DNA of 64,000 nt from Salinicola socius. Its GTDB lineage: Bacteria > Pseudomonadota > Gammaproteobacteria > Pseudomonadales > Halomonadaceae. The notes under the pieces were generated by a model. The model ran no database searches, was not told the origin of the DNA, and worked only from the letters and a program-made list of their open reading frames with translations. The translations under genes were made by a program, and so were the position numbers. Each line of letters begins with the position of its first letter. The stretch's first letter is position 1. Shown piece after piece: positions 5,537 to 20,949 of this stretch. The stretch lies in contig NZ_MSDO01000001.1 of the NCBI RefSeq assembly GCF_001937195.1, forward strand, positions 1 through 64,000, read 5' to 3'.

Positions 5537-5542
5537 GGCTCC

Positions 5543-6268
5543 ATGCCGTTACTGACGTTCGATAGCGTCGACCTGGGTTACGGAACCCAGGTCGTGCTTC
5601 CAGGGCTGACGCTATCGCTGGAAGCCGGCGAGCGCGTGGCGCTACTGGGTCAGAGCGGTGCCGGCAAGTCGACGCTGCTCGCCGAGATTCGCCGCCGCCT
5701 GGGCAACGCTGCCGCCTGGTGTCCCCAGGGGCACGGGCTGGTGCCACTATTGTCGGTGTATCACAACGTCTATATGGGGCAGCTGGAGCGCCACGCCGCG
5801 CTGACCAACCTCGTCAACCTGCTGAAACCCCGACGCGAGGCGTGGCAAGCCATCGACGCCGTGACGCGCGAACTGGGTCTCGAAGGCCTGCTCCGCCGCC
5901 CGGTAGCGCAGCTCTCGGGTGGGCAGCGCCAGCGCGTGGCGATCGCCAGAGCCTTCTTCCAGGGACGCGAGATATTCCTTGGTGACGAGCCGCTGGCCAG
6001 CGTCGACCCTCATCAGGCGCTGCGGCTGCTGGACCGCATTCAAGCACGGCACACTTCCAGCATCATTGCGCTGCATCAGCACCGGTTGGCGCTGGAATAT
6101 TTCGACCGAATCATCGGTCTGCGCGACGGCCACGTCGTGCTGGACGCGCCGGCGCGCGAGCTGACACTCGCACAGCTCGATGCGCTCTACCCCGATGCCG
6201 GGAAAAATGCCGGTACCAGCCCCCCCGGACATTCTGACCGCGAGGCCAGGCTAGAGACCTCGCCATGA
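5543..6268 (+). CDS. PhnC-like ABC transporter ATP-binding protein
   Basis: ATPase subunit of the importer, 241 residues, expected on the cytoplasmic face of the inner membrane. All ABC motifs are present: Walker A GQSGAGKST (36-44), signature LSGGQRQ (124-130), Walker B IFLGDE (about 144-149) followed by a D-loop SVDP, and a switch His in ALHQHRL. It starts 6 bases after the binding-protein stop and overlaps the permease by 4 bases (ATGA), so the three genes are one operon. Confidence 0.9.
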   Translation: MPLLTFDSVDLGYGTQVVLPGLTLSLEAGERVALLGQSGAGKSTLLAEIRRRLGNAAAWCPQGHGLVPLLSVYHNVYMGQLERHAALTNLVNLLKPRREAWQAIDAVTRELGLEGLLRRPVAQLSGGQRQRVAIARAFFQGREIFLGDEPLASVDPHQALRLLDRIQARHTSSIIALHQHRLALEYFDRIIGLRDGHVVLDAPARELTLAQLDALYPDAGKNAGTSPPGHSDREARLETSP

Positions 6269-7761
6269 GCGCAGCACCCGGCCTGCTGCGGGGTGACAGC
6301 CCCGGATTGACACTCGCGCGCCGTTCGCTGGCGCTGATCGGGTTGTGTCTACTGCTGCTGCCCTTCGCCGATCTGCGAATCATTGCCGTCGATCCCTGGG
6401 GCGAATTATCGCGCATGGCCCAAGGCTTCGCCTGGCCTGACTTCCTCGCGTTGGAAAACCCGTTACGCGCGATTGCGCTGACCGTGAGCGTCGCGCTGTG
6501 GGGGACCTGCATCGGTGCCATGCTGGGCTTTCCGCTGGCACTGCTGTTCCATCGTTCACGCCTGATACGCAGCTTCTGCGCGTTCGTGCGCGCCATTCAC
6601 GAACTGTTCTGGGCGCTGCTGTTCATTCAGGTATTCGGGCTCTCCTCGATCACCGCTCTCGCGGCGCTGGCGATTCCCTATGCCGGCATTTTCGCCAAAG
6701 TCTATGCAGAGATTCTGGAACTTGCGCCGAAATCCCCGACCGATGCGCTGCCTGCCGGCACCGATCGCCTGTCCCGATTTCTCTACGCCGAGCTGCCGCT
6801 GGTCTGGGAGCGCCTCGCCAGCTATACCCGCTACCGGTTCGAATGTGCCATGCGAGCCAGCGTGCTGCTCGGCTTCGTCGGACTGCCGACGCTCGGCTTC
6901 TATCTCGAGAGCGCTTTCCGCGAGGGCCGTTTCTCCGAAGCCGGCGCGCTGCTGTGGATCTTCTACGCGCTCGTCGCCACCTTGCAGTGGTGGGGAGATC
7001 GCCGCCTGCTGCTGCCGCTGTTGATCGGCGCGCTGTTCTTTCTCGGGCCATGGCCTGATGTCGATGGCAACCTGCTGTGGCGCTTCGTCAGCCACGATCT
7101 ATGGCCTGCACCGCTACTCGATGGAGATCTGGTCGGGCTGGGCTCCTGGCTCGCCAGTCTGCCCGACCTGCTGCCGGCAGTCGGCAACACGCTGCTGCTG
7201 GCACTCATGGGGACCGTCGGCAGCCTGATACTGGCCCTGCTGCTGTGGCCCTTGGCCAGCCACCACTTCGGTCGTCCGTGGCAGCGCATTGGCGGACGAC
7301 TGATGCTGGTCGTGCTGCGCTCGACGCCGGAGCTGATGCTGGCGTTCATCTTTCTGCTGATGCTCGGACCTTCGATGCTACCGGCGTGGCTGGCACTGGC
7401 ACTGCATAACGGTGCCTTGATCGCCTTCCTGGTGGCGCGCCACGCTGACGGTATCAAGGTCGGCATGGCGGATCTTCCGGCTTCCGGGCGCTACGCCTAC
7501 GAACTGCTGCCGCGGCTCTACCCCAATCTGCTGGCGCTGATCTGCTATCGTGCGGAAGTCATCATGCGCGAGACCGCCCTGCTCGGGATGCTGGGCGTCG
7601 CGACGCTGGGCTTCTACATCGATTCGAGCTTCCAGTACCTGATGTTCGATCAGGCCTTTTTCCTGCTGCTGGTCACCGCGGGGCTCAACATCGCCATCGA
7701 CGCGATCTCCCGTCGCTTCCGGCCGCGCGAGGCTCCGCTCGACGATCCGTGCAGCCGCTGA
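6265..7761 (+). CDS. PhnE-like ABC transporter permease, duplicated/fused
   Basis: Inner-membrane permease of the importer. At 498 residues it is about twice the length of a single PhnE/PtxC permease and contains two similar halves. Each half carries the cytoplasmic coupling segment of the family: around residues 150-220 (YAEILELAPKSPTDALPAGT and later GFVGLPTLGFYLES) and around 395-450 (GVATLGFYIDSSF). The repeated GxxxLGFYxxS motif indicates an internal duplication that supplies both permease subunits in one chain. It ends the operon; a gene-free region of 317 bases follows. Confidence 0.87.
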   Translation: MSAAPGLLRGDSPGLTLARRSLALIGLCLLLLPFADLRIIAVDPWGELSRMAQGFAWPDFLALENPLRAIALTVSVALWGTCIGAMLGFPLALLFHRSRLIRSFCAFVRAIHELFWALLFIQVFGLSSITALAALAIPYAGIFAKVYAEILELAPKSPTDALPAGTDRLSRFLYAELPLVWERLASYTRYRFECAMRASVLLGFVGLPTLGFYLESAFREGRFSEAGALLWIFYALVATLQWWGDRRLLLPLLIGALFFLGPWPDVDGNLLWRFVSHDLWPAPLLDGDLVGLGSWLASLPDLLPAVGNTLLLALMGTVGSLILALLLWPLASHHFGRPWQRIGGRLMLVVLRSTPELMLAFIFLLMLGPSMLPAWLALALHNGALIAFLVARHADGIKVGMADLPASGRYAYELLPRLYPNLLALICYRAEVIMRETALLGMLGVATLGFYIDSSFQYLMFDQAFFLLLVTAGLNIAIDAISRRFRPREAPLDDPCSR

Positions 7762-8078: not shown

Positions 8079-8774
8079 ATGACGGACCTTTACCTACAGG
8101 ATTGGCGAGCCTGGACGCCCCATCGGGAGACCGCTGGGGAGTGCCGCCTCGACACCCGTGAAAAACCTGCCGGCGCGGCCGTACCGTCCATGTTGCGACG
8201 GCGTCTCAACCTGCTCGGACGGGCGGTTTGCGACATGCTCGCGACCCTCGATTCCGGTGCCGACAGCATCGTGCTGCACGCTTCACGTCACGGCGACGGC
8301 GAGCGAACGCTGGAGATGCTGTACGGTCTGAACGACGGTGAGCCGCTGTCGCCGGCACGTTTCGGACTGTCGGTGCACAACGCCACGGTGGGGGTCTACT
8401 CCATTGCCAGCGGCAATCGGCGCAGCCAGCAAGCGGTTGCCGCCAGCGGCGGCGAGTGGGCGGCCCTGATGGCAGAGGCGCGCGGCTATCTCGCCGATGG
8501 CCAACCCAGTGTCATCATCGTCTTCAGTGACCAGCCCGTTCCCCGGCGCTTCGCCGCCTACGCTCCCGAGTCGTCTTCCGCCGCCGTCGTTCTTCGCCTG
8601 GGCCGAGATCCGAATCCCGGCGCCCGGCGACTCTCGGAGACCTCTGTCGAGCTCGAGCTCGAGACAGCGACGCTGCAACCCCTCGATATCATCGATTGGC
8701 TGATGGACAGGCGTCGGGTCGTGGCTTGCCCCTTGAGTCGTCGCAGTTGGCAATTTCCAGCCGTTCGGCCATGA
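8079..8774 (+). CDS. Aryl polyene ketosynthase chain length factor (beta-ketoacyl synthase-like, Ketoacyl-synt_2)
   Basis: A short ketosynthase-like subunit (231 residues) of the type used as chain length factor in aryl polyene (APE) synthases. It pairs with the full ketosynthase (here at 18183-19364) to set polyene length. Family features are FGLSVHNATVGVYSIASGN (about 94-112), which replaces the catalytic Cys segment, and the GGEWAALMAEA helix. No active-site Cys is present in that position, as expected for this role. It is the first gene of the operon. Its stop overlaps a short open frame in an ATGA, where other APE clusters have a small acyltransferase. Confidence 0.85.
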   Translation: MTDLYLQDWRAWTPHRETAGECRLDTREKPAGAAVPSMLRRRLNLLGRAVCDMLATLDSGADSIVLHASRHGDGERTLEMLYGLNDGEPLSPARFGLSVHNATVGVYSIASGNRRSQQAVAASGGEWAALMAEARGYLADGQPSVIIVFSDQPVPRRFAAYAPESSSAAVVLRLGRDPNPGARRLSETSVELELETATLQPLDIIDWLMDRRRVVACPLSRRSWQFPAVRP

Positions 8775-8927
8775 TCCGCGGCCTGAGAGGCCATGCGCAT
8801 CGCGGTGGCGTCTCAGGATACCGATATGAGAGTCTCGCCTTCGCCGCAGGTTTGCGGCAACGCGCTCGACACCGGGATCGAGCGTCAGCCATTGATAATG
8901 AATGACAAGGACGATCAAGACAGATGA
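8771..8927 (+). other. Short spacer with two tiny coupled open frames; possible deletion scar
   Basis: Between the chain length factor and the ACP lie about 150 bases. A 44-codon frame (8771-8905) begins at the ATGA of the preceding stop, and a second 44-codon frame (8793-8927) ends in an ATGA with the ACP start. Neither resembles a known protein. In typical APE clusters this place holds a 1-acyl-glycerol-phosphate-type acyltransferase and a first ACP. The overlaps fit a deletion that kept the outer junctions, but chance is possible. Confidence 0.3.
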
Positions 8928-9190
8928 CAACGACAGCGCTGGAACACGAACTCAAAGAGATGATCATCGAGACTCTGGAGCTGGAAGATGTCACACCCGA
9001 TGACATCGACCGCGACGAACCGTTGTTCGTCGAGGGACTCGGGCTCGACTCCATCGACGCGCTCGAACTGGGTCTCGCGCTGCAGAAGCGCTACGGCATT
9101 ACGCTGGAATCCGAAGCGGAGTCCTCCCGCCAGCATTTTGCCAACCTGAAAAGCTTGGCAGCCCTGGTTGAATCGCGTCGCCAGAAATGA
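8924..9190 (+). CDS. Acyl carrier protein of the aryl polyene pathway
   Basis: An 88-residue phosphopantetheine-binding carrier that should hold the growing polyene chain. The attachment Ser is S43 in GLGLDSIDALELG, and the protein is acidic with the four-helix ACP pattern. AAGGA lies about 12 bases upstream of the ATG. It resembles the second of the two ACPs usually found in APE clusters; the first is not present here. No phosphopantetheinyl transferase gene lies in the window, so activation must rely on one elsewhere. Confidence 0.93.
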   Translation: MTTTALEHELKEMIIETLELEDVTPDDIDRDEPLFVEGLGLDSIDALELGLALQKRYGITLESEAESSRQHFANLKSLAALVESRRQK

Positions 9191-9206
9191 AGCCGGGGGC
9201 GTCTTG

Positions 9207-9830
9207 ATGTCGTCAGCTATCAGCTCCGGTCGCCATCGCCTTCTCTGGCTGGCCGTGGGCTTCGTGGGCCTGCTGTGGCCGCTGGTGGTGCATTTTCTGC
9301 TGCCGCATTACGGGGCCTGGCCACTACTGATCGCGCTTGCCGCCATCGCCTGGTGGCGCCTGCCTGCGGGGCAGCGCCGCTGGGGCTGGGTTCTGCTGCC
9401 ACTGACCCTGGTGCTGATGGCCACCGACAGCGCGGAGCTCGGCCTTCGGCTGTGGCCGGTCGTGGTGAATCTCGCGCTACTGCTGGTCTTCGCCCACGGG
9501 CTGCGCCATCCGCCCACGCTGATCGAGCGTTTCGCCCGCCGCCAGGAGCCGGATCTGCCGCCCCACGCCGTGCGCTATACCCGTCGGGTCACCCAGGCCT
9601 GGTGCGTGTTCTTCGTGCTCAACGGCAGTGTCGCCCTGGCGACCGCGATCCATGCCGATCTCGATGTCTGGGCGTGGTACAACGGCGGGATCGTCTATGG
9701 GCTCATGCTCGCCATGTTCCTGGGCGAATGGTGTATTCGCCAACGGGTCAAACGTCGGGCGGAAGAACACCGGGACGGAGCCCTTCAGGGCGGTCATCAT
9801 GAAGAAAAGGCGCGTCATGACGTTTCGTGA
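9207..9830 (+). CDS. Aryl polyene cluster integral membrane protein (COG4648-like)
   Basis: A 207-residue inner-membrane protein with about five hydrophobic segments (roughly residues 13-32, 38-54, 64-80, 85-100 and 145-180), matching the small membrane protein normally found between the ACP and the ligase of APE clusters. Its biochemical role is not known to me. The ATG at 9207 is chosen because family-like sequence starts there and GGGGG lies just upstream. The 3' end overlaps the ligase gene by 14 bases. Confidence 0.8.
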   Translation: MSSAISSGRHRLLWLAVGFVGLLWPLVVHFLLPHYGAWPLLIALAAIAWWRLPAGQRRWGWVLLPLTLVLMATDSAELGLRLWPVVVNLALLLVFAHGLRHPPTLIERFARRQEPDLPPHAVRYTRRVTQAWCVFFVLNGSVALATAIHADLDVWAWYNGGIVYGLMLAMFLGEWCIRQRVKRRAEEHRDGALQGGHHEEKARHDVS

Positions 9831-11565
9831 ATTGACCGAACGCCCCTGGCGTCATCGTTCAGCGGCAGAGGTCTTTGCCTGGATCCCCCCGGCGGGCGCT
9901 GCGCCAGCACGCTGGTTCACCGTCGGCGAGTGGCACGCGCGAATCGGGGCGTGGCAGCAACATCTGCTCGACACACCCAACGAGAGCGGCATCTGGCGGC
10001 TCTTCGAGCCGGACCCGATCGAATTCAGCGCGGCCCTGATCGCAATCTGGGAACGCGGCGAGCGGGTCGTACTGCCGGCGGATAATCAGCCGGAGACACT
10101 GGCGAACCTGCGTGCTACGGGTGTCGCACTGGGAGCACCCCCCCCGGCGCATGAAGACGACGCGCCGACAGAACTGCCGAGTCGCCCCCCTCGCTGGTCC
10201 TCGCGGTCACTGCCCGACATCGCCGTTTCGCTCTACACCTCCGGCTCCAGCGGCGAGCCGCAGAGACTGGACAAGCGCTTCGATCAACTGGATGCCGAAC
10301 TCGCCACCCAGGCATCACTCTGGCCCCTTCGGTCGCAGCTGGTGGTCAGCCAGGTCAGTCATCAGCACATCTACGGGCTGCTGTTCTCGATTCTGCGTCC
10401 ACTGTGCGAGGCGAGCCCATTCGCGGCACAGACCTGCCGCTACCCGGAAACCCTGCGTACCTGGCTGCAGAGCAGCCGGACGGCGGGGCGTCGGATCATC
10501 CTCGTCAGCGCCCCACCCGCGCTGTCACGCCTGCCCGAGGCGCTCGACTGGAAACCGGTGAGCGCCGCGCTGGAGACGATCTACAGCTCCGGCGCGCCAC
10601 TCTCGAAAGGTGCCAGCGATCAGGTCCATGAGCTGCTCGGCAAGCCCGTTCACGAGGTCTACGGCAGCTCCGAGACCGGCGGCATCGCCTGGCGCATTCA
10701 ACGACACGGCCCGGACTGGATCGCCCTTCCCGGCGTCGACGTGCGCCATGACGAGGACAACCGCCTGTGGCTGCGCTCGCGCCATCTGGCGTCGCCGGAT
10801 CAGTGGCAGCGTCAGGCCGACAGGATCGCGCTGACAGAAGCCGGATTCGAGCTGCTGGGCCGAGCCGATCGCATCGTCAAGATCGGCGGCAAGCGGATCT
10901 CGCTGACAGCGATGGATCGGGCGCTTGCCACACTTCCGGGCGTCGAGCGAGCACGAACCTGGACACTGCAGCGGCGAGAACTGCGTCTGGCCGCGGTCAT
11001 CCAGCTGACGCCGGGCACGATGCCCCACGACCACCGCCACCATCGAGCCATGGTAAAACGGCTGCGACGGGCGCTTGCCGCGCATTTCGAAACGCCGGCG
11101 CTACCTCGTTACTGGCGCTTCGTGGATCACTGGCCCACCAACACCCAGGGCAAGTTGAGCGCCGAGATCCGCCAGCGTCTGTTCCGGGATCTGGAGGACC
11201 GACGCGCGCCGCGCTGGCTGGGCGAGCATCCGCACCAAAACGGCTGGAAGATCACGCTGGAAGTTCCGGAGCGCTGCGCTTTCGTCGATGGACACTTCGA
11301 CGGCCAGCCTGTGCTGCCAGGTATTGCCCTGGTGCAATGGGCGATGCAGCAGGCGCGCCGACTGTTCGCGCTGAGATCCGATTTTGCCGGGCTCGAACGC
11401 CTGCGATTTCCCCAGCCCCTGCTGCCCGGCGACCGCTTCGAGATGACGCTCGATCATCGTCACGGCGACGCGAACGAGAGCCTGCGCATCGACTGCGATA
11501 GCCAGCGCGGAAAGCACGTCACCGGGCGCATCGCCCTGGTGACCCGGCAAGAGTGGGAGAGGTAG
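9817..11565 (+). CDS. AMP-dependent acyl-ACP ligase fused to a FabZ-like hotdog dehydratase (aryl polyene)
   Basis: A 582-residue, two-domain protein. Residues 1 to about 460 are an ANL adenylating enzyme: LYTSGSSGEPQRLDK (139-153), YGSSETGG (282-289), GRADRIVKIGGKRI (348-361) and the catalytic Lys in NTQGKLS (K446). It probably activates the aryl starter acid for loading on ACP. Residues from about 475 to 582 are a hotdog domain with GHFDGQPVLPG (492-502). His493 is present, but the position 14 residues on, Glu in FabZ and in my recollection Asp in APE relatives, is Gln507. The start at 9817 has AAAAGG upstream; 9799 is an alternative. These functions are often on separate genes. Confidence 0.87.
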   Translation: MTFRELTERPWRHRSAAEVFAWIPPAGAAPARWFTVGEWHARIGAWQQHLLDTPNESGIWRLFEPDPIEFSAALIAIWERGERVVLPADNQPETLANLRATGVALGAPPPAHEDDAPTELPSRPPRWSSRSLPDIAVSLYTSGSSGEPQRLDKRFDQLDAELATQASLWPLRSQLVVSQVSHQHIYGLLFSILRPLCEASPFAAQTCRYPETLRTWLQSSRTAGRRIILVSAPPALSRLPEALDWKPVSAALETIYSSGAPLSKGASDQVHELLGKPVHEVYGSSETGGIAWRIQRHGPDWIALPGVDVRHDEDNRLWLRSRHLASPDQWQRQADRIALTEAGFELLGRADRIVKIGGKRISLTAMDRALATLPGVERARTWTLQRRELRLAAVIQLTPGTMPHDHRHHRAMVKRLRRALAAHFETPALPRYWRFVDHWPTNTQGKLSAEIRQRLFRDLEDRRAPRWLGEHPHQNGWKITLEVPERCAFVDGHFDGQPVLPGIALVQWAMQQARRLFALRSDFAGLERLRFPQPLLPGDRFEMTLDHRHGDANESLRIDCDSQRGKHVTGRIALVTRQEWER

Positions 11566-11568
11566 CGG

Positions 11569-12324
11569 ATGTCGAACGACAACAGCGCCCGTGTCGCGGT
11601 TCTGGTTCCCGTCTATAACCATGCCGAGGCCATCGGCCACACGCTGGAGCGGCTCCGGCTGCTGAGCCTGCCGTTCATTCTGGTCGACGACGGTAGCGAC
11701 GCGCACTGCGCCGAGGTGCTGGAAAACCTGGCCGAGTCGGACACGGTGGATCTGGTCAGGTTGCCGGTCAATCGTGGCAAGGGCGCCGCCGTGAGAGCCG
11801 GACTGGCGCGGGCTGCCGAGCGCGGGCTGACTCACGTGCTCCAGGTGGATGCCGACGGCCAGCACGAAGCCACCGACCTTCCTCCTTTCGTCGAGGGGCT
11901 TGGTGCCGACGACGAGGTGCTGAAGATCGGCTATCCACGTTTCGACGCCAGCGTGCCACGACATCGATTCTATTCCCGCTATATCACCCATTCGCTGGTG
12001 TGGCTGGCAACGCTCTCTTTCGATCTTCGCGATACCATGTGCGGGGTCAAGCTCTACCCGGTTTCCGCCGTCAATCGATTGGTCGCCGAACAACCCTGCG
12101 GCGACCGCATGGAGTTCGACAGCGAGCTACCGGTGCGCTGGCACTGGTGGGGGGGCGCCATCGCCAATCTGCCGGTACGGGTTCGCTATCCGATCGACGG
12201 CGTCTCCCATTTCAAGCTGTGGCGAGACAACGTTCTGCTCGCCCGCATGCATTTCCGTCTCGTGATCGGCATGTGCCGACGCCTTCCCCATCTCTTGAGC
12301 CGCCGCCAGGAAACGCTTTCATGA
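11569..12324 (+). CDS. Family 2 glycosyltransferase (aryl polyene cluster)
   Basis: A 251-residue GT2 enzyme with a GT-A fold: VLVPVYNHAEAI at the N-terminus, LVDDGSD (about 39-45), NRGKGAAVRAGL and the metal-binding DADGQHEATDL (about 92-102). There is no obvious transmembrane segment, unlike dolichol-phosphate mannose synthases with membrane tails. In APE clusters this gene is thought to help attach the polyene head group to a sugar or lipid anchor; that role is an inference. It lies 3 bases after the ligase gene with GAGAGG upstream, and overlaps the acyltransferase gene by 4 bases (ATGA). Confidence 0.88.
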   Translation: MSNDNSARVAVLVPVYNHAEAIGHTLERLRLLSLPFILVDDGSDAHCAEVLENLAESDTVDLVRLPVNRGKGAAVRAGLARAAERGLTHVLQVDADGQHEATDLPPFVEGLGADDEVLKIGYPRFDASVPRHRFYSRYITHSLVWLATLSFDLRDTMCGVKLYPVSAVNRLVAEQPCGDRMEFDSELPVRWHWWGGAIANLPVRVRYPIDGVSHFKLWRDNVLLARMHFRLVIGMCRRLPHLLSRRQETLS

Positions 12325-13334
12325 CACCGGTCAGCAGCAATCCCAATCACTGGTCGAGAATTCGCGAAACCGGCACTGCCCGTGGCGTCCGCACCATGGT
12401 CTGGATCCGCCGCAAACTGGGCCGTCTGCCGTTTCAGATCATGCTGACGCTGGTGATCGTCTACTACTATATCGCCCACGGTCTGCATCGACGTGCGTCC
12501 CATACCTACCTGACCCGGCTGTGGCAGCACCGGCATGGTCATGCACCCGGCCATCTGACCTGGCTGAGCCTGCGCCATTTCCGCAGTTTCGGACAGAGTC
12601 TGATGGACAAGATCGATGCCTGGAGCGGCATTCCACCGGCGCTCAGCTTCGAGGGCGACACGCGTGAGCGTTTTCGCCAGGCGGTCGTGGGTGGACGCGG
12701 GGGCATCATGCTCGTCTCCCATGTCGGCAACATGGAGATCTGTACCGCCATGAGCGACATGCAGGATGACTTCCAGGCGACACTGCTGATGCATACGCGT
12801 AACGCCAAGCAGTTCGACGAGGTACTGGCGCGCTCGACCCATCGCGAGAATCCGCCAGAGATCATCGAAGTCAGCGAGATCACGCCCTCGACGGCGATGC
12901 AGCTGGGTCGCAGAATTGCCGAGGGCGGCTTCGTCGTCATCGCCGCCGACCGGGTGCCGATCAGCGATAGCGGACGCGCCCGGACGCTGCCGTTTCTGGA
13001 CCATCCGGCACGATTCCCGGAAGGGCCATTCTGGCTGGCTGGCCTGCTGCGCTGCCCGATCTACACCATCGGCTGCTTCCGCGAAGCCACCAGCTACCGG
13101 ATCGATTTCGATCACTTCGACGACACCAGCGAACTGAGCCGACGGGATCGTGCGGCATGGATCGACAGCGCCATGCACCGCTATGTCGACTGGCTGACCC
13201 GTCAATGCGAGAAGACGCCGTTACAGTGGTTCAACTTCTTCCCCTTCTGGCTGGATTGCGATGACGCCCATGCCGACGCCGACCGCGATCAGCAACGCGA
13301 GAACGCCCCCGAAGATCGACACTCCGCCACCTGA
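12321..13334 (+). CDS. LpxL/HtrB-like lipid acyltransferase (aryl polyene cluster)
   Basis: A 337-residue inner-membrane acyltransferase of the lysophospholipid/lipid A late acyltransferase family. One N-terminal membrane segment (about 37-54) is followed by the catalytic HX4E motif in HVGNMEI (His134, Glu139) and by the later ADRVPISDSGRARTLPFL and FPEGPFWLA segments. It likely links the polyene or a fatty acid to the lipid anchor in the outer leaflet; the acceptor is unknown. It starts within the glycosyltransferase stop (ATGA). Confidence 0.87.
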   Translation: MTPVSSNPNHWSRIRETGTARGVRTMVWIRRKLGRLPFQIMLTLVIVYYYIAHGLHRRASHTYLTRLWQHRHGHAPGHLTWLSLRHFRSFGQSLMDKIDAWSGIPPALSFEGDTRERFRQAVVGGRGGIMLVSHVGNMEICTAMSDMQDDFQATLLMHTRNAKQFDEVLARSTHRENPPEIIEVSEITPSTAMQLGRRIAEGGFVVIAADRVPISDSGRARTLPFLDHPARFPEGPFWLAGLLRCPIYTIGCFREATSYRIDFDHFDDTSELSRRDRAAWIDSAMHRYVDWLTRQCEKTPLQWFNFFPFWLDCDDAHADADRDQQRENAPEDRHSAT

Positions 13335-13372
13335 CCCCCGGCCACACAGACATCAAACCGAAGGATTCGAAC

Positions 13373-13930
13373 ATGCCGCTTCGTCGATGGTTGATTACGC
13401 TCCTGGTGCTGGTGCTGGTGCCAATAAGCGCCCAGGCTTTCGATCTGGACGATCTGCAACGTCAGCTCGCCGCTACGCCGTCGGTGGCGGGCCGCTTCGA
13501 ACAGCAGCGCGAACTGGCGGATCTCGACAGCTCGTTGACCAGTACCGGCACCTTCGTCTTCGAGCGCGGCAAGCGCGTCGTCTGGGAGCTGAAAACGCCG
13601 GTTCAGGAGCGCATCGAACTGACGCCCCAGGCCATCACCGATGGCAGCGGCGAGACTGCGCCGCCGGGCGGCGAACAGGTCGCCCAGCTGTTTCTGCAAC
13701 TGCTGGAAGGCGACTGGCAGGCGCTGGAATCCCGCTTCACGCTGCAACTGTCCGGCGATCAGGACGCCTGGCAGGTCGCGCTGAGGCCAAAAGAGGCGGC
13801 ACTGCGTGAGCGCATCGCCGGAATCACCCTTCAGGGGGACCGCACCATCGATCATCTCGACATGCGCACGCCCGATGGTGACCGGCTCAAGGTTCGTCTG
13901 TTCGACCAGCACCCGCTGAACGGCGCATGA
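13373..13930 (+). CDS. LolA-like periplasmic carrier protein (aryl polyene cluster)
   Basis: A 185-residue secreted protein related to the outer-membrane lipoprotein carrier LolA. A Sec signal peptide (residues 1-22, cleavage after AQA) precedes a beta-rich domain that starts FDLDDLQRQLAATPSVAGRFEQQRELADL, the LolA-type opening. AAGGA precedes the ATG. Its cluster position suggests it shuttles the hydrophobic polyene lipid across the periplasm after the MMPL exporter; this is inferred from LolA homology. It overlaps the exporter gene by 4 bases. Confidence 0.88.
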   Translation: MPLRRWLITLLVLVLVPISAQAFDLDDLQRQLAATPSVAGRFEQQRELADLDSSLTSTGTFVFERGKRVVWELKTPVQERIELTPQAITDGSGETAPPGGEQVAQLFLQLLEGDWQALESRFTLQLSGDQDAWQVALRPKEAALRERIAGITLQGDRTIDHLDMRTPDGDRLKVRLFDQHPLNGA

Positions 13931-16257
13931 CCCGCGCCAACTATCACCGCCTGGGCTGGCTCTGGTTCGCGGTACTGACACTCTGCACCCTCTGGCTGGG
14001 CTGGATGCTACGTCAGGGACTGCCCGCGGATACCGATCTGACCGCCCTGCTGCCCGCCGATCGGCAGGCGCCGCTGGTCGAAAGGGCGGATCGCGAACTG
14101 GGGCGCGGTTTCGAGAATCGCTTTCTGCTGCTGCTCGGTGACGACGATCGCGTCGCGACGACCCAGGCACTGGGGAAATCGCTGCAGACGCTGGTCGACG
14201 AAGGCCAGCTTGCCGCGATCGACTGGCGCGAGCTGGATCTGGCCGACGCCGATCCGCACGGCTGGATGGGGCCGTGGCGCTATCGGCTGCTGACGCCGCA
14301 ATGGCAGCAGACCCTCGATGACGGCGATGGCCGCACCCTGGTCGAGCCGGCGCTGCGCCGACTGTTCTCGCCGACGGCCCGTCCGGATCCCGTCGCCGAC
14401 CCTTTCGGCCTGCTGGATGTCTGGCTTTCGCGGCTGCCACAGAGCCCGATTGGCGCCGCCGATGGCCTGTTGACACTGGATACCGGCGATCAGCCCGATG
14501 GCCGGCAGTGGAGCGTGCTGATCGGCGAGCTCAAGGGTTCCCCCTACGATCTACCGATGCAGAATGCCCTGCACAGCACGCTTGCGCAGTTTCAGCAGCA
14601 GCATCCCGAGGCCGAACTGCTGCGCTCCGGTCTGGTCTTTCACGCCGCCGCCGGCGCCCGTCAGGCCAAACACGAGATGTCGACCATCGGCGCCGCGTCT
14701 CTGCTCGGGGTGCTGTTGATCATCGCGTTCGTGTTCCGCTCGCCCCGAGTGTTGCTGCAACTGATGGTCCCGCTGCTGGCCGGATCGCTGTTCGCGTTGA
14801 CCCTGACCCTGGGGCTGTTCGGCCGGCTCCACCTGCTGACGCTGGCCTTCGGTGCCAGCCTGATCGGCATTGCCATCGACTACGTGCTGCACCTGCAGTG
14901 CGATCGCGCCATCGCGGGCCGGGGATTTCGCCTGCGCCGGCTGCTGCCGAGCCTCGTCCTGGGGCTGATCTCGAGCGTCATCGCTTACGTGGCCCAGGCA
15001 CTGACGCCGATGCCGGGATTACGCCAGATGGCCGCGTTCGCCGCGTTCGGACTGATCGGAGCCTGGCTCACCGTGGTGCTGTGGCTGCCTCGCTTCACGC
15101 TGCACGCCAGCCCGTTTACCGACCGCCTGGCCACCCGATGGTGGCGTCTGTGTCAGCCACGCTGGCAGCTACCGCCGTGGCTCGCCTTGATCGGCGCGAT
15201 CGCGCTGGTGATCGTCTGCGCCGTGCGCCTGACCAGCGACGACAGCCTGGAACTGCTCAATCCTTCGCCAGCGGCGCTGATGCAGGACGAGCAGCGCGTA
15301 CAACAGCTGCTCGACCGCGATACCGGTAGCCGCTATTTTCTGGTTCAGGCCGAGAACACCCAGGCGCTGCTGGCCCGGCTCGACGCACTGGATGCCGAGC
15401 TCGACCGGGCCATCGCCGACGGACTCCAGATCGAGTACCAGTCGCTGGCCGGCTCGGTACCGACGATGGCCGAGCAGCAGGCCAATCTGGCAAGGGTGGG
15501 CAAGCTCTATGGCGCGCCGCTGGATGACCTCGTCCAACGCGCCGGGCTGCCGGCCGAAGTCGCCCGGAAAGCCAGAGCCCAGCTCGGGAAGTCGCCGCCC
15601 TTGACTCTCGATGACTGGCTCGGCACACCATTGGGAAAGCTTCAGCAGCGGCTATGGTTGGGCCGGACGCCGGAAGGCGGTGTCGCGGCGACGGTGGTCA
15701 TCTCCGGTGCCCGGGGCGCCGCACCCGACAAGGTCCTGCGCGACCTGGCCGGCGCGCAGGCCGGCGTCGAATATGTCGATCGCGTCGAACGGATCGGCGC
15801 CCTGCTCGGCGAGTTGCGCCGCCATACCGCGGTATGGGTTCTGGCGGCGATGACACTGATGACACTGGCACTGATAGGGCGCTACCGCCGCCACGCCTGG
15901 CGCGTCATCGTGCCACCCTTCGGCGCCACCCTGATCGTGCTGGCCTCGTTTGCCCTCGCTGGCGTCCCGCTCAACATTTTCAACCAACTGGGGCTGCTGC
16001 TGGTATTGGGGATCGGACTGGATGCCGGTATCTTCAACGTGGAGCACGCCAGGAAGCCGTCGGCCTGGCTCGCGATCACGCTGTCGACGCTCACCAGCCT
16101 GCTGGCGTTCGGCATGCTCGCCTTCAGCGCCACGCCCGCGCTGCACTATCTGGGTCTGACCTGCCTGATCGGTCTGGCCAGCGTATGGATGCTGGTTCCC
16201 TGGGTAAGACCAGTCGATCCCAACCGGACGCAACGACAGGAGATCGAACATGAGTGA
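13927..16257 (+). CDS. MMPL/RND family exporter (aryl polyene cluster)
   Basis: A 776-residue inner-membrane transporter of the MMPL branch of the RND superfamily. One N-terminal helix (about 9-28) is followed by a large periplasmic domain (30-235), a block of about five helices (245-390), a second periplasmic domain (430-630) and a second helix block (635-770). The repeated arrangement is typical of RND permeases. In APE clusters it is the presumed pump for the polyene lipid, handing it to the LolA-like protein. It overlaps the next gene by 8 bases. Confidence 0.9.
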   Translation: MTRANYHRLGWLWFAVLTLCTLWLGWMLRQGLPADTDLTALLPADRQAPLVERADRELGRGFENRFLLLLGDDDRVATTQALGKSLQTLVDEGQLAAIDWRELDLADADPHGWMGPWRYRLLTPQWQQTLDDGDGRTLVEPALRRLFSPTARPDPVADPFGLLDVWLSRLPQSPIGAADGLLTLDTGDQPDGRQWSVLIGELKGSPYDLPMQNALHSTLAQFQQQHPEAELLRSGLVFHAAAGARQAKHEMSTIGAASLLGVLLIIAFVFRSPRVLLQLMVPLLAGSLFALTLTLGLFGRLHLLTLAFGASLIGIAIDYVLHLQCDRAIAGRGFRLRRLLPSLVLGLISSVIAYVAQALTPMPGLRQMAAFAAFGLIGAWLTVVLWLPRFTLHASPFTDRLATRWWRLCQPRWQLPPWLALIGAIALVIVCAVRLTSDDSLELLNPSPAALMQDEQRVQQLLDRDTGSRYFLVQAENTQALLARLDALDAELDRAIADGLQIEYQSLAGSVPTMAEQQANLARVGKLYGAPLDDLVQRAGLPAEVARKARAQLGKSPPLTLDDWLGTPLGKLQQRLWLGRTPEGGVAATVVISGARGAAPDKVLRDLAGAQAGVEYVDRVERIGALLGELRRHTAVWVLAAMTLMTLALIGRYRRHAWRVIVPPFGATLIVLASFALAGVPLNIFNQLGLLLVLGIGLDAGIFNVEHARKPSAWLAITLSTLTSLLAFGMLAFSATPALHYLGLTCLIGLASVWMLVPWVRPVDPNRTQRQEIEHE

Positions 16258-17548
16258 AGTCGACCACGATGTCATCGTCATCGGCGCCGGGCCGGCCGGT
16301 GCGACGGCTGCCGCTCGTCTGACGGCGGCCGGGCGGGACGTACTGGTGGTCGAGCGCAGCCATTTTCCACGCTTTTCCATCGGCGAGAGTCTGCTGCCGC
16401 AGTGCATGATCCATCTCGAGGAGGCCTGCCTGCTGGACGCTGTCATGGCCGCCGACTACCAGCCCAAGAATGGCGCCGCATTCACCCGCAACGGTGAAGA
16501 GACGGCAATCGATTTCCGCGAGAAATATACGCCCGGCTGGGGCACGACTTTCCAGGTCGAACGCGCCGACTTCGATCAGCGGCTGATCGAAGGTGCCCGC
16601 GACCAGGGCGCGAAGGTCGAATTCGGCGTTACCGTCACCGCCTTTCGCCCCGACGAGCGCTGTCCGCAGGTCGATCTCGTCGATGAATCCGGCGATGTCC
16701 GTACGCTGACGGCCCGCTTCGTGCTCGACGCCAGCGGCTATGGGCGTGTCCTGGCCCGACTCGAGAATCTCGAGCGCGATGCGCGCCAGGACCCTCGCAC
16801 GGCGCTATTCACCCATGTCGAAGCCTGCCCGGTGGAACCAGGCCACGATCGCGAAAAGATTCTGATTGGTGTCCATCCTGAAGATCCCGGCATCTGGTAT
16901 TGGCTGATTCCGTTTCGAAATCAGCGCGCCTCGGTGGGCATGGTCGGCCAAACCGATCGCATCCATGCCCATGGCGCCACTCCGGCAGCGCGATGGCAAG
17001 CGCTGATCGATGCCGAACCCCGCTTCCGCCAGCTTCTCAATGGGGCCCGCCCGACCCGGCCGGTGGGCGAGCTATGCGGTTATTCCGCCGATGTGACGCA
17101 GCTGCATGGCCCCGGCTATGCGCTGCTGGGCAACGCCGGGGAGTTTCTGGATCCCGTATTCTCCTCCGGTGTCACCATCGCCCTGCGCTCGGCCAGCCTC
17201 GCCGCACCGTTGGTGGAACGGCAATTGGCGGGGGGAGACACCGACTGGCACGCCGAGTTCGAGGCTCCGCTGCGCGAAGGTGTCGAGACGTTCCGTGCCT
17301 TTGTCGATGCCTGGTACGACGGTCGCCTGCAGACGATCATCTTTCATGCCGATGCGCCGAGCGACATCAAGGCCCGCATCAGCGCGATCCTGGCAGGGTA
17401 CGCATGGGACCGAAGCAATCCGTTTGCCAGTGCCTCGCGCCGCCATATCGACACCCTGGCGGCGATCTGCGAGATGCGGACAGCCGCATCGAACCATTCC
17501 GGAACCGACGACCCCGATACCGACCTGCCCGCGGAGAGCCGATCGTGA
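16250..17548 (+). CDS. FAD-dependent oxidoreductase, halogenase/geranylgeranyl reductase-like (aryl polyene cluster)
   Basis: A 432-residue flavoprotein with an N-terminal Rossmann loop, [15 protein letters not shown] (about 9-23), a VVERSHFPRFSIGESLLP segment (about 35-52) and the second FAD motif YALLGNAGEFLDPVFSSG (about 288-305). It resembles flavin-dependent halogenase and geranylgeranyl reductase families. The tryptophan-halogenase WxWxIP motif is not evident (a WYWLIPF segment occurs), so halogenation should not be assumed. AGGAGA lies before the ATG. APE clusters routinely carry such a gene; its reaction is not settled as far as I know. Confidence 0.85.
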   Translation: MSEVDHDVIVIGAGPAGATAAARLTAAGRDVLVVERSHFPRFSIGESLLPQCMIHLEEACLLDAVMAADYQPKNGAAFTRNGEETAIDFREKYTPGWGTTFQVERADFDQRLIEGARDQGAKVEFGVTVTAFRPDERCPQVDLVDESGDVRTLTARFVLDASGYGRVLARLENLERDARQDPRTALFTHVEACPVEPGHDREKILIGVHPEDPGIWYWLIPFRNQRASVGMVGQTDRIHAHGATPAARWQALIDAEPRFRQLLNGARPTRPVGELCGYSADVTQLHGPGYALLGNAGEFLDPVFSSGVTIALRSASLAAPLVERQLAGGDTDWHAEFEAPLREGVETFRAFVDAWYDGRLQTIIFHADAPSDIKARISAILAGYAWDRSNPFASASRRHIDTLAAICEMRTAASNHSGTDDPDTDLPAESRS

Positions 17549-18186
17549 TGCGCCAGTTGTCTCCCCGCCTGCTGGCGTGCTGTCTGATGCCCTGGCTGGC
17601 ACTGATGCTGGCCGCCTGCAGCCTGACGCCACCGGCCTCGCCGTCGCCGACGCTGGCCGCGGCGACGACGTCCGATACCTTGAAGAGTCAGCTGACGTTT
17701 CAGCCCGAGGATGGCGACGCCCGCACGCTGATCGCATTCATCCGAATCACGCCGGAGCAGCTGCGCGCCGTGCTGATCACGCCTTATGGCCAACGGCTGA
17801 CGACACTGATTCGAGATGCCGATGGCGCACGCTTCGAAGCCGGGGATGCGCCGGGAGAATCGCCTCTGCCGATACCCCCAGCGTGGCTGGCGTCGCGTCT
17901 GGAATGGAGCCTGTGGCCACTGGACGCCCTGCGGCAGTCCTTTTCCGGTAGCGCCTGGCAGGTCGTCGACAGCGCCGCGAGTCGCGACATCCGCTACCGC
18001 GGCAAACTCGCCGCGCGCATCACGCCGGTGCCGGACCGCGATCACCCCACCACGCTGGTGCTGGATGATCGGCAGGGCAACTACCAACTGACGATCGCTC
18101 CCATGCAAGACGCCAACGAGAAGCAGAACAACGAGCAGCAGAGCGACGAACAGGACAACGAAGAACAGGAGAATGCCGAGCCATGA
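17548..18186 (+). CDS. DUF3261 family lipoprotein (aryl polyene cluster)
   Basis: A 212-residue predicted lipoprotein with a lipobox LAAC (Cys24) after a hydrophobic signal segment. The central region (about 45-185) resembles the DUF3261 proteins that accompany APE exporters and may form an outer-membrane receptor for the polyene lipid, as LolB does for lipoproteins; that role is an inference. The last 25 residues are low-complexity, almost all Asn, Gln, Glu and Asp. The ATG shares one base with the preceding stop (TGATG) and the 3' end overlaps the ketosynthase by 4 bases. Confidence 0.8.
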   Translation: MRQLSPRLLACCLMPWLALMLAACSLTPPASPSPTLAAATTSDTLKSQLTFQPEDGDARTLIAFIRITPEQLRAVLITPYGQRLTTLIRDADGARFEAGDAPGESPLPIPPAWLASRLEWSLWPLDALRQSFSGSAWQVVDSAASRDIRYRGKLAARITPVPDRDHPTTLVLDDRQGNYQLTIAPMQDANEKQNNEQQSDEQDNEEQENAEP

Positions 18187-19364
18187 GTGCCGCTTTCGCT
18201 TGCCGCCTGTCCCGACCCGGCGTCGTCTGCTCGCTGGGCGACGATCTGGAGACGATCGGTCAGGCGCTTTTCGACGGTGAGCGCGGCCTGACGAGCAGCG
18301 ATGCCTTTACACCAGGCCATCCGCTACCGCTGGGACGCGTCACCGGCGAACTACCCGACGACAGCCAGTGGCCGAAGGATCATCGCAGCCGAAACAATCG
18401 CCTGCTGGCACTGGCACTGAAACGGCTCGAGTCGGAAATCGAGCCGTTGCTGAAACACGTCGCGCGGGATCGGATCGGCGTGGTCATCGGCACCAGCACG
18501 TCGGGGATCGGCGAAACCGAGCAGGCGCTGGCCGTCAGCGGCCGGGAAGGAGCGCTGCCCGAGACGTTCGCCTACGCGCGTCAGGAACTGGGGGCGCCGG
18601 CACGCTTCGTCGCCGAGCGTCTGGGTATTGCCGGCCCCTGCTACGCTCTGTCCACCGCCTGCAGCTCCAGTGCCAGAGCGTTGGCCAGCGCCAGACGACT
18701 GCTCAAAAGCGGCCAGTGTGACGCGGTGATCGCCGGTGGCGCGGACAGCCTGTGTCGCCTGACGGTCAACGGGTTCATCAGCCTGGAAGCCGTCAGCGAC
18801 AAACCTTGCCTGCCTTTCTCCCGGCATCGCGACGGCATCAACCTCGGCGAGGCGGCGGCGCTGTTCGTCATCACGCGAGAAACCGGCGGCATTCAACTGG
18901 CAGGGGTCGGTGAAAGCGTCGATGCCCATCATATTTCGGCGCCCCGGCCTGACGGCAGCGGCGCGGCCGATGCCATGCGCCAGGCGCTGGCAATGGCCGG
19001 ACGCGATCCGGCGGAGATCGACTATCTCAACCTTCACGGTACCGGCACGCGGCTCAACGACAGCATGGAAGCGGCAGCCGTGGCGACGCTCTTCGCCACG
19101 CCGCCCGGCTGCAGCTCGACCAAGGCGCTGACCGGCCATACCCTGGGCGCGGCCGGCGCGCTGGAAGCGGCGTTCTGCTGGCTGGCGCTCGATCAGGGGC
19201 GGCTGCCAAGGCATGTCTTCGACGGTGAGCACGACCCCGAGATCGCGTCGCTGCCGCTGGCAACCACCAGCGCGGCACCGGCGCGTCGGTTGCGCCATGC
19301 GTTGAGCAACAGCTTTGCATTTGGCGGCAACAACGCCAGCCTGCTGCTGAGCCGAACCGAGTGA
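18183..19364 (+). CDS. Beta-ketoacyl-ACP synthase (aryl polyene ketosynthase)
   Basis: A 393-residue condensing enzyme that extends the polyene with malonyl-ACP units. The Cys-His-His triad is complete: Cys160 in LSTACSSSARAL, His285 in LNLHGTGTRLND and His319 in ALTGHTLGAAGA. It should pair with the chain length factor at 8079-8774. It is the only full ketosynthase in the cluster; many APE clusters end with a second one after the ketoreductase. Confidence 0.92.
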   Translation: MSAAFACRLSRPGVVCSLGDDLETIGQALFDGERGLTSSDAFTPGHPLPLGRVTGELPDDSQWPKDHRSRNNRLLALALKRLESEIEPLLKHVARDRIGVVIGTSTSGIGETEQALAVSGREGALPETFAYARQELGAPARFVAERLGIAGPCYALSTACSSSARALASARRLLKSGQCDAVIAGGADSLCRLTVNGFISLEAVSDKPCLPFSRHRDGINLGEAAALFVITRETGGIQLAGVGESVDAHHISAPRPDGSGAADAMRQALAMAGRDPAEIDYLNLHGTGTRLNDSMEAAAVATLFATPPGCSSTKALTGHTLGAAGALEAAFCWLALDQGRLPRHVFDGEHDPEIASLPLATTSAAPARRLRHALSNSFAFGGNNASLLLSRTE

Positions 19365-19413
19365 CGCATCCGAATAGATTGAGCCACGAATACGAGAACG
19401 GAACGTTATTCCT

Positions 19414-19929
19414 GTGATTGCCCCCGACACGGTTTCACCGCCCGGCGCGATGCCATTGCCCGGACCCATCGCGCCGCTGGTCCCCCATGCCCGAGGCATG
19501 TGCCTGCTGGACCGGCTGATCGACGCTCACGTGGACGGCGCCACGGCCGAGATCGTCACCCGGCGCGACGATCTGTTTGCCGAAGCCGATGGCATTCCGG
19601 CCTGGATCGGCATCGAGTGGCTGGCGCAGACCGTCGCCGCCTGGGCCGGCTTTCGCGCTGCCGCGACCCAGGAGCCGCCGCCCCCGGGTCTGCTGCTGGG
19701 CGCCAGGCGCTACCGCGCCCGCGAGCCCGTCTTTGCCTTCGACCAGCGTATCCGCGTCGTCGTGACCATCGACTTCGTCGCCGACAACGGCGTCACCCAG
19801 ATCAACGGTGAGCTGCAGGTCGCCGAAAACGAGGCTTCGACGGCTCTCGCAGGTAGCGAGGCGCCCTTGGCTCACGGCAGTCTGACGCTCTATCGACCCG
19901 ACTCGATGCCAATATCCAACCGCGTCTGA
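19414..19929 (+). CDS. 3-hydroxyacyl-ACP dehydratase, hotdog fold (aryl polyene)
   Basis: A 171-residue hotdog dehydratase that forms the polyene double bonds. The likely catalytic pair is visible: His25 in LVPHARGMCLLDRL and Glu68 in WIGIEWLAQTVAAW, the pattern of APE-type dehydratases. The frame opens with GTG at 19414, preceded only loosely by GGAA; an in-frame ATG at 19450 is less likely because it would leave very little before His25. With the hotdog domain of the ligase fusion this gives two dehydratase domains in the pathway, of which this one has intact catalytic residues. Confidence 0.85.
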   Translation: MIAPDTVSPPGAMPLPGPIAPLVPHARGMCLLDRLIDAHVDGATAEIVTRRDDLFAEADGIPAWIGIEWLAQTVAAWAGFRAAATQEPPPPGLLLGARRYRAREPVFAFDQRIRVVVTIDFVADNGVTQINGELQVAENEASTALAGSEAPLAHGSLTLYRPDSMPISNRV

Positions 19930-19971
19930 CGGCATCGGTTTCATCACTCGCAGCGCTACGCTTGAGGCTCC

Positions 19972-20709
19972 ATGGAAGAACGACATTCCGAGACTGTTCT
20001 GGTTACCGGTGCCAATCGAGGCATCGGCGAAGCGATCGCCAAACGTCTGGCCTGGGACGGCTACGACCTGGTGCTGCACTGCCGGCGCCCGGGCGACGAT
20101 ATCGACGCGGTCAAGGCTGCAGTGGAAAGCGAAGGTCGCCGAGTGCGCCTCGTTCACTTCGACGTCACCGAGAGAGACACGGTCAAGGCGGTGCTGGAGG
20201 CGGACATCGCCGCCCACGGTTGTTACTACGGCGTGATCTGCAACGCCGGCATCACCGCGGACAAGCCTTTTCCGGCCCTGGACGGCGAGGATTGGGATCG
20301 CGTCCTGCGGACCAATCTGGATGGCTTCTACAACGTTCTGCACCCACTGGTCATGCCGATGATCCAGCGCCGCAAGCCAGGACGTATCGTGGCGCTCTCC
20401 TCGATGTCCGGTTTGACGGGCAATCGCGGTCAAGTCAATTACAGCGCAGCCAAGGCCGGAATCATCGGCGCCAGCAAGGCGCTGGCCGTCGAACTCGCCA
20501 AGCGTCGGATCACGGTCAACTGCGTCGCGCCCGGCTGGATCGAGACACGCATGACCGACGAGCTACCGCGCGATGAGATTCGCAAGCTGATCCCCATGCA
20601 GCGCACCGGAACAACCGAGGACGTCGCCGGCACCGTGAGCTTTCTCTGCTCGGCGGATGCCGCCTATATCACACGACAGGTGATCGCGGTGAACGGCGGC
20701 ATGTGCTGA
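19972..20709 (+). CDS. 3-oxoacyl-ACP reductase, FabG-like SDR (aryl polyene ketoreductase)
   Basis: A 245-residue short-chain dehydrogenase that reduces the beta-keto group during polyene assembly using NADPH. The cofactor loop GANRGIGEAIAKRL (about 11-24), the NAG motif (ICNAGIT), the catalytic Ser in LSSMSGLTGNRG and the YxxxK motif YSAAKAGI are all present. It is the last gene of the APE operon; the next gene is on the other strand. It could be mistaken for a housekeeping fabG, but that gene normally lies with fabD and acpP. Confidence 0.9.
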   Translation: MEERHSETVLVTGANRGIGEAIAKRLAWDGYDLVLHCRRPGDDIDAVKAAVESEGRRVRLVHFDVTERDTVKAVLEADIAAHGCYYGVICNAGITADKPFPALDGEDWDRVLRTNLDGFYNVLHPLVMPMIQRRKPGRIVALSSMSGLTGNRGQVNYSAAKAGIIGASKALAVELAKRRITVNCVAPGWIETRMTDELPRDEIRKLIPMQRTGTTEDVAGTVSFLCSADAAYITRQVIAVNGGMC

Positions 20710-20731: not shown

Positions 20732-20917
20732 TCAGTCCGGGGCACGGGGATTCAGCACCGGCGGCAATGCCGCCGGTCGACGGGCCGCCAGTTCGGCAAC
20801 GGCGATCTCCAGCAGCACCACGGCCAGCTCGCTCAAGTTGACGTTGCGTTTGTTGGCTTCGATCGCCAATAGCCGATATGTGGAGTCGCTGAGGTGGTTT
20901 AGCACCAACCGGGCCAT
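20732..20917 (-). CDS. Orphan ribbon-helix-helix DNA-binding protein (antitoxin-like)
   Basis: A 61-residue protein beginning MARLVLNHLSDSTYRLLAIEANKRN, with the strand-helix-helix layout of FitA/Arc-type repressors and TA antitoxins. GAGGA lies 7 bases before the ATG at 20917; an upstream in-frame ATG at 20947 would overlap the palindrome described at 20936-20949. No toxin gene (PIN or RelE type) is adjacent on either side. The C-terminal third is Ala/Pro-rich. The family call rests on pattern resemblance, so it could also be a short regulator of unknown type. Confidence 0.6.
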   Translation of the reverse strand: MARLVLNHLSDSTYRLLAIEANKRNVNLSELAVVLLEIAVAELAARRPAALPPVLNPRAPD

Positions 20918-20935
20918 AGGGAAGTCCTCGAGTGC

Positions 20936-20949
20936 CAGTGTCAACACTG
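20936..20949. promoter_or_regulatory. Palindromic operator candidate for the RHH gene
   Basis: CAGTGT at 20936-20941 and ACACTG at 20944-20949 form a 6-bp perfect dyad with a 2-base centre, 18 bases before the RHH start codon. RHH repressors commonly autoregulate from such short palindromes. The minus strand also reads TTGACA here (20939-20944), a possible -35 hexamer, though no matching -10 fits before the start codon. Confidence 0.45.

What the first reader, a model, noticed from the sequence alone, without database searches (positions are those of the whole stretch)
8079..20709. Reduced, rearranged aryl polyene pigment cluster
The operon carries the hallmark APE genes in order, but lacks several that I know from described clusters: the small acyltransferase and first ACP after the chain length factor, the second ketosynthase after the ketoreductase, a phosphopantetheinyl transferase, a thioesterase and an ammonia-lyase. 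It keeps a full export set (MMPL, LolA-like, lipoprotein). It may make a polyene with a different head group, length or anchor, or depend on unlinked genes.
Basis: partly seen in the sequence, partly recalled or inferred. Interest (0 to 1): 0.7.

Follow-up and report, generated by a model that had tools for sequence, protein, structure and literature searches.

The report
Streamlined aryl polyene pigment operon
This is an intact, slimmed-down version of a common bacterial gene set for yellow protective pigments, shared by its close relatives, and comparison with other bacteria suggests that two pigment genes of unclear role are kept or lost together.

Summary
The operon is real: 13 genes at 8079-20709 (+), all open, with the catalytic motifs that were checked present. 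It is collinear with the E. coli CFT073 aryl polyene (APE) cluster, so "rearranged" is wrong. ApeA, B, D, F, K and R are absent; a halogenase-like flavoprotein is extra; ApeH/I are fused and ApeJ is split. The carrier kept is ApeE, the essential one; the one missing is ApeF. The genus is Salinicola, and 16 of 17 other genomes searched carry the same 13 genes (the 17th is cut by a contig end). The genes are under purifying selection. Reduction is therefore old and maintained. Across 88 other clusters of the family there is a graded series of gene sets. ApeF and ApeR, at opposite ends of the operon, are both present (29) or both absent (59), never one alone, while D, K and an ammonia-lyase vary separately. 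A tree does not prove more than one co-loss in the family. An ammonia-lyase of the missing type sits unlinked in this genome, with one phosphopantetheinyl transferase and chorismate lyase (UbiC). Verdict: most likely a working, minimal APE variant. The ApeF-ApeR link is the interesting part.

The parts
8079..8774 (+). ApeC-like chain-length factor (KS N-terminal-like half)
   Evidence: PF13723 E 2.5e-43; 26% to E. coli ApeC
8924..9190 (+). acyl carrier protein, ApeE-like, GLDSI attachment site
   Evidence: PF00550; 57% to E. coli ApeE, 31% to ApeF; motif
9168..9830 (+). ApeG-like membrane protein (COG4648 type)
   Evidence: 50% to E. coli ApeG over 107 residues; no Pfam match
9817..11565 (+). 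acyl-ACP ligase (ApeH) fused to ApeI-type dehydratase
   Evidence: PF00501 + PF22818; 29% to ApeH, 32% to ApeI; translated from 9820 in the searches
11569..12324 (+). glycosyltransferase family 2, N-terminal half of ApeJ as a separate gene
   Evidence: PF00535; 47% to ApeJ 9-242
12321..13334 (+). LpxL-type acyltransferase, C-terminal half of ApeJ as a separate gene
   Evidence: PF03279; 31% to ApeJ 248-549; HVGNME motif
13373..13930 (+). LolA-like periplasmic carrier (ApeL)
   Evidence: PF19574/PF03548; 26% to ApeL
13927..16257 (+). MMPL/RND-type transporter (ApeM)
   Evidence: 33% to ApeM over residues 190-770; no Pfam match
16250..17548 (+). flavin-dependent halogenase-like oxidoreductase, no match in the E. 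coli cluster
   Evidence: PF04820; closest solved chain 3nix, E 3e-95, then halogenases; GxGxxG, WYWLIP and KNGAAF motifs
17545..18186 (+). DUF3261 lipoprotein (ApeN position), lipobox LAAC
   Evidence: PF11659; LAAC; no BLAST match to E. coli ApeN, which is annotated DUF3261 too
18183..19364 (+). ketosynthase ApeO, catalytic Cys-His-His motifs present
   Evidence: PF00109/PF02801; 48% to E. coli ApeO; best solved chain 6qsp_A; motifs
19414..19929 (+). ApeP-type dehydratase
   Evidence: PF22817; 26% to ApeP
19972..20709 (+). ketoreductase ApeQ (FabG-like)
   Evidence: PF13561; 56% to ApeQ; YSAAK motif

Best explanation
This is an intact, single-carrier, single-ketosynthase aryl polyene operon of Salinicola (Halomonadaceae), a stable streamlined form of the widespread E. 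coli-type cluster. Proposed working (inferred from homologues): UbiC makes 4-hydroxybenzoate (the unlinked ammonia-lyase may supply another aryl acid); the ApeH domain loads it on ApeE; ApeO-ApeC extend it with malonyl units, carried by ApeE or by the fatty-acid carrier AcpP; ApeQ and the ApeI domain/ApeP reduce and dehydrate each unit, giving the conjugated polyene; the flavoprotein may halogenate or oxidise the product; the two halves of ApeJ join it to a lipid anchor; MMPL, LolA-like and DUF3261 proteins carry it to the outer membrane. ApeR, ApeF, ApeD and ApeK are steps that this lineage does without. Shown here: gene content, motifs, conservation, purifying selection, and where the missing functions are or are not in the genome. 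Not shown: pigment, product structure, expression.
For: 13 open genes with diagnostic domains or matches to E. coli ape proteins and the catalytic motifs searched for present. Collinear with E. coli CFT073 ape. Same 13 genes in the same order in 16 of 17 other Salinicola genomes, the 17th cut by its contig end. dN/dS 0.035-0.323 for the 13 genes against two relatives. In E. coli, deletions of apeF, apeD and apeK leave partial pigment, the apeR mutant still makes the main APE lipid, and the apeE mutant is APE-negative (PMC8253772, passages, Discussion part 1). ApeO-ApeC alone gives fully elongated polyene in vitro (PMC8358021, abstract and passages). UbiC, one Sfp-type PPTase and AcpP are in the genome.
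Against: No chemistry or expression data. The same E. coli paper concludes that, except perhaps apeR, all genes of that cluster seem needed for full assembly or proper attachment; its apeB and apeK mutants give immature acids and its apeD, apeJ and apeR mutants late intermediates. So the product or its anchor here may differ. No promoter was found above chance (1 found, shuffles mean 2.0).
Confidence: 0.85

Rival explanations
1. The cluster is decaying: genes were lost recently and no pigment is made.
For: Six E. coli genes have no counterpart here; the unlinked ammonia-lyase match of one relative (G017) is partial and holds a stop.
Against: Same gene set across the genus, all frames open, dN/dS 0.035-0.323 in the 13 genes, motifs present.
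Confidence: 0.04
2. The cluster needs unlinked partners: the stand-alone ammonia-lyase at G000:C99:180298-181839 makes its aryl starter, so the head group differs from the 4-hydroxybenzoate type.
For: It is 62-67% identical to four in-cluster lyases of sister genera but about 30% to this genome's other lyase, which lies near a urocanase gene. Its YTFHGCGLG and NQDKVSM segments recur in in-cluster copies (NQDKVSM in 35 of 41 by pattern, the first by eye). At E <= 1e-100 this lyase type is found in 57 of 201 family genomes, all with an APE cluster: 41 in the cluster, 16 unlinked, none with both.
Against: 3 of 18 Salinicola genomes with the same cluster show no match, and a fourth (G017) only a partial one with a stop. 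The 16 unlinked copies are 15 of Salinicola plus one other genome, so few independent events; the minimal clusters of two other genera have no such lyase match. UbiC is present.
Confidence: 0.35
3. It is a xanthomonadin-type cluster rather than a reduced E. coli-type one.
For: Single carrier, single ketosynthase and a halogenase-like gene, as reported for Xanthomonas or Azoarcus (PMC8253772, PMC3691225, PMC3949708; passages).
Against: Gene order is E. coli-like with ApeC first and ApeO near the end; in Lysobacter and Azoarcus the two are adjacent. Sister-genus clusters of the same order carry F and R and share a tree with it (which held no Xanthomonas row). A XanB2-type chorismatase was not searched for in the genome.
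Confidence: 0.07

Closest known systems
E. coli CFT073 APE cluster (apeA-R)
   Same: Same order of C, E, G, H, I, J, L, M, N, O, P, Q; same export set
   Different: Window lacks A, B, D, F, K, R; H and I fused; J split in two; extra halogenase-like flavoprotein
Full APE clusters of other Halomonadaceae (25 of 88 loci, e.g. L061, L068, L071)
   Same: Core 13 genes, same order, including the flavoprotein
   Different: They add D, F, an ammonia-lyase, K and R
Xanthomonadin-type clusters (Xanthomonas, Lysobacter, Azoarcus)
   Same: One carrier, one ketosynthase with a half-size CLF; halogenase in some
   Different: ApeC/ApeO adjacent in Lysobacter and Azoarcus, XanB2-type chorismatase in the cluster, other order
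Flavoprotein 3nix
   Same: Best solved match of the 16250-17548 protein
   Different: Deposited as flavoprotein/dehydrogenase; its function is not established by these calls. That it comes from a flexirubin maker (Cytophaga) is recalled

Membership tests
Aryl polyene (APE) biosynthesis cluster, E. coli type | ApeO ketosynthase with ApeC half-CLF | tested here: met
   PF13723, 48% to ApeO, 6qsp_A best chain
Aryl polyene (APE) biosynthesis cluster, E. coli type | ApeE carrier and ApeH acyl-ACP ligase | tested here: met
Aryl polyene (APE) biosynthesis cluster, E. coli type | ketoreductase plus ApeI/ApeP dehydratases | tested here: met
Aryl polyene (APE) biosynthesis cluster, E. coli type | export set G, L, M, N | tested here: met
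   G, L and M match E. coli proteins; N by PF11659 only
Aryl polyene (APE) biosynthesis cluster, E. coli type | second carrier ApeF and second ketosynthase ApeR (usual, not essential) | tested here: not met
Aryl polyene (APE) biosynthesis cluster, E. coli type | aryl polyene product | not testable with these tools
   needs extraction and mass spectrometry
Xanthomonadin cluster | XanB2-type chorismatase in the cluster | tested here: not met
   no such domain reported among the 13 products; rest of genome not searched for it
Xanthomonadin cluster | ApeC and ApeO genes adjacent | tested here: not met
   8079-8774 and 18183-19364, more than 9 kb apart
Flavin-dependent halogenase (16250-17548) | GxGxxG, WxWxIP and a K in KxGAxF (motif meaning recalled) | tested here: met
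   WxWxIP in 86 of 86 family copies kept for the profile
Flavin-dependent halogenase (16250-17548) | halogenating activity | not testable with these tools
   assay needed

The most novel reading that the evidence does not exclude
ApeF (second carrier) and ApeR (second ketosynthase) form one functional module of aryl polyene synthesis that is gained or lost as a unit, although the genes lie at opposite ends of the operon; clusters like this one run on ApeE and ApeO-ApeC alone and are natural knock-outs of that module.
Probability: 0.5. Interest if true: 0.6.

Novelty: new variant of a known kind. Interest (0 to 1): 0.42.

Why it matters
A paper seen here calls the precise role of each of the two APE carrier proteins still unclear and treats ApeR as a redundant or boosting ketosynthase (PMC8358021, passages). 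The family shows which genes can be shed and which are kept, and a strict ApeF-ApeR co-occurrence (29 both, 59 neither, 0 one) gives a direct, testable idea about their role. It also offers a compact 13-gene set for heterologous APE production, and an ammonia-lyase that lies outside the cluster yet, in the 201 genomes searched, only in cluster-bearing ones. As a cluster in itself it is an ordinary APE operon.

Tried and rejected
A remnant of ApeD in the gap at 8775-8923: only short frames there (up to about 45 codons); no ApeD profile match in window frames of 50 codons or more; shorter frames were not scanned. Rearrangement: rejected by collinearity. Unlinked ApeR: rejected; at E <= 1e-85 the 29 of 201 family genomes with an ApeR are exactly the 29 with ApeF. 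This genome's other full-length ketosynthases are 35-37% identical to ApeR, partial ones up to 42%. Unlinked ApeD or ApeK: only weak partial matches (33% over 142 residues; E 0.001). Two independent F/R losses in the family: parsimony gives 2 changes each, but the test for one reduced clade does not reject it (p-AU 0.327), so I claim only one or more. In-frame TGA reported in MMPL matches of other genomes: in the five looked at, the alignment ran past the gene's own stop. Promoters and terminators: not above chance. Literature: no held paper has both "Salinicola" and "aryl polyene"; 18 have "Halomonas" and "aryl polyene" (listing only, none opened); ApeE + ApeF + aryl polyene gave 2 papers. 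I saw no statement of ApeF-ApeR co-occurrence (listings, several capped) or in the passages of the four papers opened; subscription journals, including the X. doucetiae in vitro work, were not read.
Full report
WHAT IS THERE. Positions 8079-20709 (+) hold 13 closely packed open genes. Pfam and comparison with the 18 ape proteins of E. coli CFT073 give, in order: ApeC-like half-CLF; one ACP; ApeG-like; ApeH fused to ApeI; glycosyltransferase 2; LpxL-type acyltransferase; LolA-like; MMPL; halogenase-like flavoprotein; DUF3261 lipoprotein; ApeO ketosynthase; ApeP; ApeQ. Catalytic motifs searched for by pattern are present: CSSS, HGTGT and GHT in ApeO, GLDSI in the ACP, YSAAK in the reductase, GHFDGQPVLPG in the fused dehydratase, HVGNME in the acyltransferase (their meaning is recalled). 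A phosphonate-type ABC transporter lies upstream and mutS downstream.

Against E. coli the operon lacks A, B, D, F, K and R, and is otherwise collinear, so it is reduced but not rearranged. The glycosyltransferase and LpxL-type genes together match E. coli ApeJ (47% and 31%), so that acyltransferase is not lost. The ACP is 57% identical to ApeE and 31% to ApeF: the carrier kept is the essential one and the missing one is ApeF. E. coli's cluster also has no phosphopantetheinyl transferase (PMC8253772), and its annotation and gene table list no ammonia-lyase.

GENUS. A search of 18 genomes of the genus (own included) found the MMPL protein in all 18. In 16 of the 17 others all 13 genes occur in the same order with none of D, F, K, R or the lyase in the stretch fetched; the 17th, L039, is cut by its contig end within the DUF3261 gene. 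Named loci with matching contig lengths show the genus to be Salinicola. dN/dS of the 13 genes against two relatives is 0.035-0.323.

FAMILY. Of 201 family genomes (drawn from a larger group), 93 match the MMPL protein. Four of these were weak (E 7e-5 to 7e-4: G019, G132, G162, G186) and were not followed, and one is the window's own, leaving 88 loci, all fetched. Patterns of the optional genes: none, 34; D+F+lyase+K+R, 25; D+lyase, 8; lyase only, 8; K only, 6; D+F+K+R, 4; D only, 3. Profile scores separate presence from absence cleanly for D, F, lyase and K. For R, two presences lie in extension loci L136 and L137, and absent loci score up to 150 bits through ApeO. ApeF and ApeR: both in 29, neither in 59, one alone in 0. 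Genome-wide, an ApeR at E <= 1e-85 occurs in 29 of 201 genomes, the same 29. F is the fourth gene of C-D-E-F and R the last, so one deletion of neighbours does not explain it. On a tree of ApeO, ApeQ, the flavoprotein and the glycosyltransferase (quick method, E. coli as outgroup), F and R each need 2 changes, D 5, the lyase 6 and K 2. But holding all 60 reduced rows as one clade is not rejected (p-AU 0.327), so only one co-loss in the family is safe, and relatedness inflates the 59.

WIDER SAMPLE. PF13723 is found at E <= 1e-8 in 89 of 398 genomes of the phylum, six of them of this family. I fetched loci for 40 of the other 83, chosen by hand for spread of families, each about 4 kb before and 16 kb after ApeC. 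With profiles from the family and E. coli: 28 have F and R; 3 have F but the stretch or contig ends before R could be seen (L145, L146, L169); 9 show neither. Of the 9, eight have another layout with ApeO beside ApeC, and the stretch need not hold their whole cluster; the ninth, L174, lacks F and K and has, before ApeC, a ketosynthase scoring only 249 bits for ApeR (0.61 per residue, against 1.3 or more per residue in the 28). L174 can be read either way. Among 47 named loci, most of which do not show both ends of the cluster or are other ketosynthases, Duganella L211 and L218, Treponema L217 and the myxococcal L219 show both F and R; Treponema L215 shows neither within its 21 kb. L215 against L217 is a further concordant pair.

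MISSING FUNCTIONS IN THIS GENOME. Carrier domains: three places, a large multidomain protein, AcpP beside FabF, and this ACP. Ketosynthase matches: eight places; the other full-length ones are 35-37% identical to ApeR, partial ones up to 42%. PPTase: one, Sfp-type with a 4PPT_N domain. UbiC: one. ApeD and ApeK: weak partial matches only. Ammonia-lyase: two. One is near a urocanase gene, so taken as the histidine lyase. The other, at C99, is 62-67% identical to four in-cluster lyases; its YTFHGCGLG and NQDKVSM segments recur in in-cluster copies (NQDKVSM in 35 of 41 by pattern). It lies beside purL here, in one other Salinicola genome and in G067, but not within the 6-kb stretches of two more Salinicola genomes. 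Over 201 genomes this lyase type (E <= 1e-100) is found in 57, all with an APE cluster, 41 inside it and 16 elsewhere, never both. 15 of the 16 are Salinicola (own included); three Salinicola genomes have no match and G017 has a partial one with a stop.

MECHANISM. The in vitro and deletion work seen here (PMC8358021, abstract and passages; PMC8253772, passages and first part of Discussion) says ApeO-ApeC suffices for full-length polyene, ApeR raises throughput, ApeE is essential, and apeF, apeD, apeK and apeR mutants keep pigment in part or whole. The same paper also says that all genes but perhaps apeR seem needed for full assembly or proper attachment in E. coli. The window's gene set is thus one that should still make the polyene acid, while its anchoring may differ. 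Product, anchor and halogenation are inference. Lysobacter, with one ACP and one KS-CLF pair, makes a related pigment with a light- and peroxide-protective role (PMC3691225, passages).

JUDGEMENT. A stable streamlined variant of a known system. The new element is the strict ApeF-ApeR co-occurrence with free variation of D, K and the lyase, which is suggestive but rests on few independent events.

Noticed in passing
16250-17548: Halogenase-like flavoprotein in the operon (WYWLIP, KNGAAF); a copy is found in 87 of 88 other family loci (all but L095) but no match in E. coli's cluster.
   Followed up: partly
4682-7761: Phosphonate-type ABC transporter (binding protein, ATPase, 498-aa protein with no Pfam match) next to the APE operon; also next to it in many other family loci, on the other side in L068 and L073.
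   Followed up: partly
L139:8296-9840 (G000:C99): Stand-alone aromatic amino-acid lyase beside purL; an 88% identical copy, also beside purL, in G067, a genome of another genus code, which may mean transfer.
   Followed up: partly
G000:C45 end and G000:C88 start: A FabB-like ketosynthase gene may be cut over two contig ends (L004, L006).
   Followed up: no
L174: APE cluster of another family without ApeF and ApeK but with a ketosynthase of low ApeR score just before ApeC.
   Followed up: partly
L182: Cluster with ApeO-ApeC adjacent, two ApeE-like carriers and a second, partial ApeO-like match; layout unlike the rest.
   Followed up: no
20732-20947 (-): Small 71-aa open frame between the operon and mutS, antitoxin-like by eye only; no Pfam match.
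   Followed up: no
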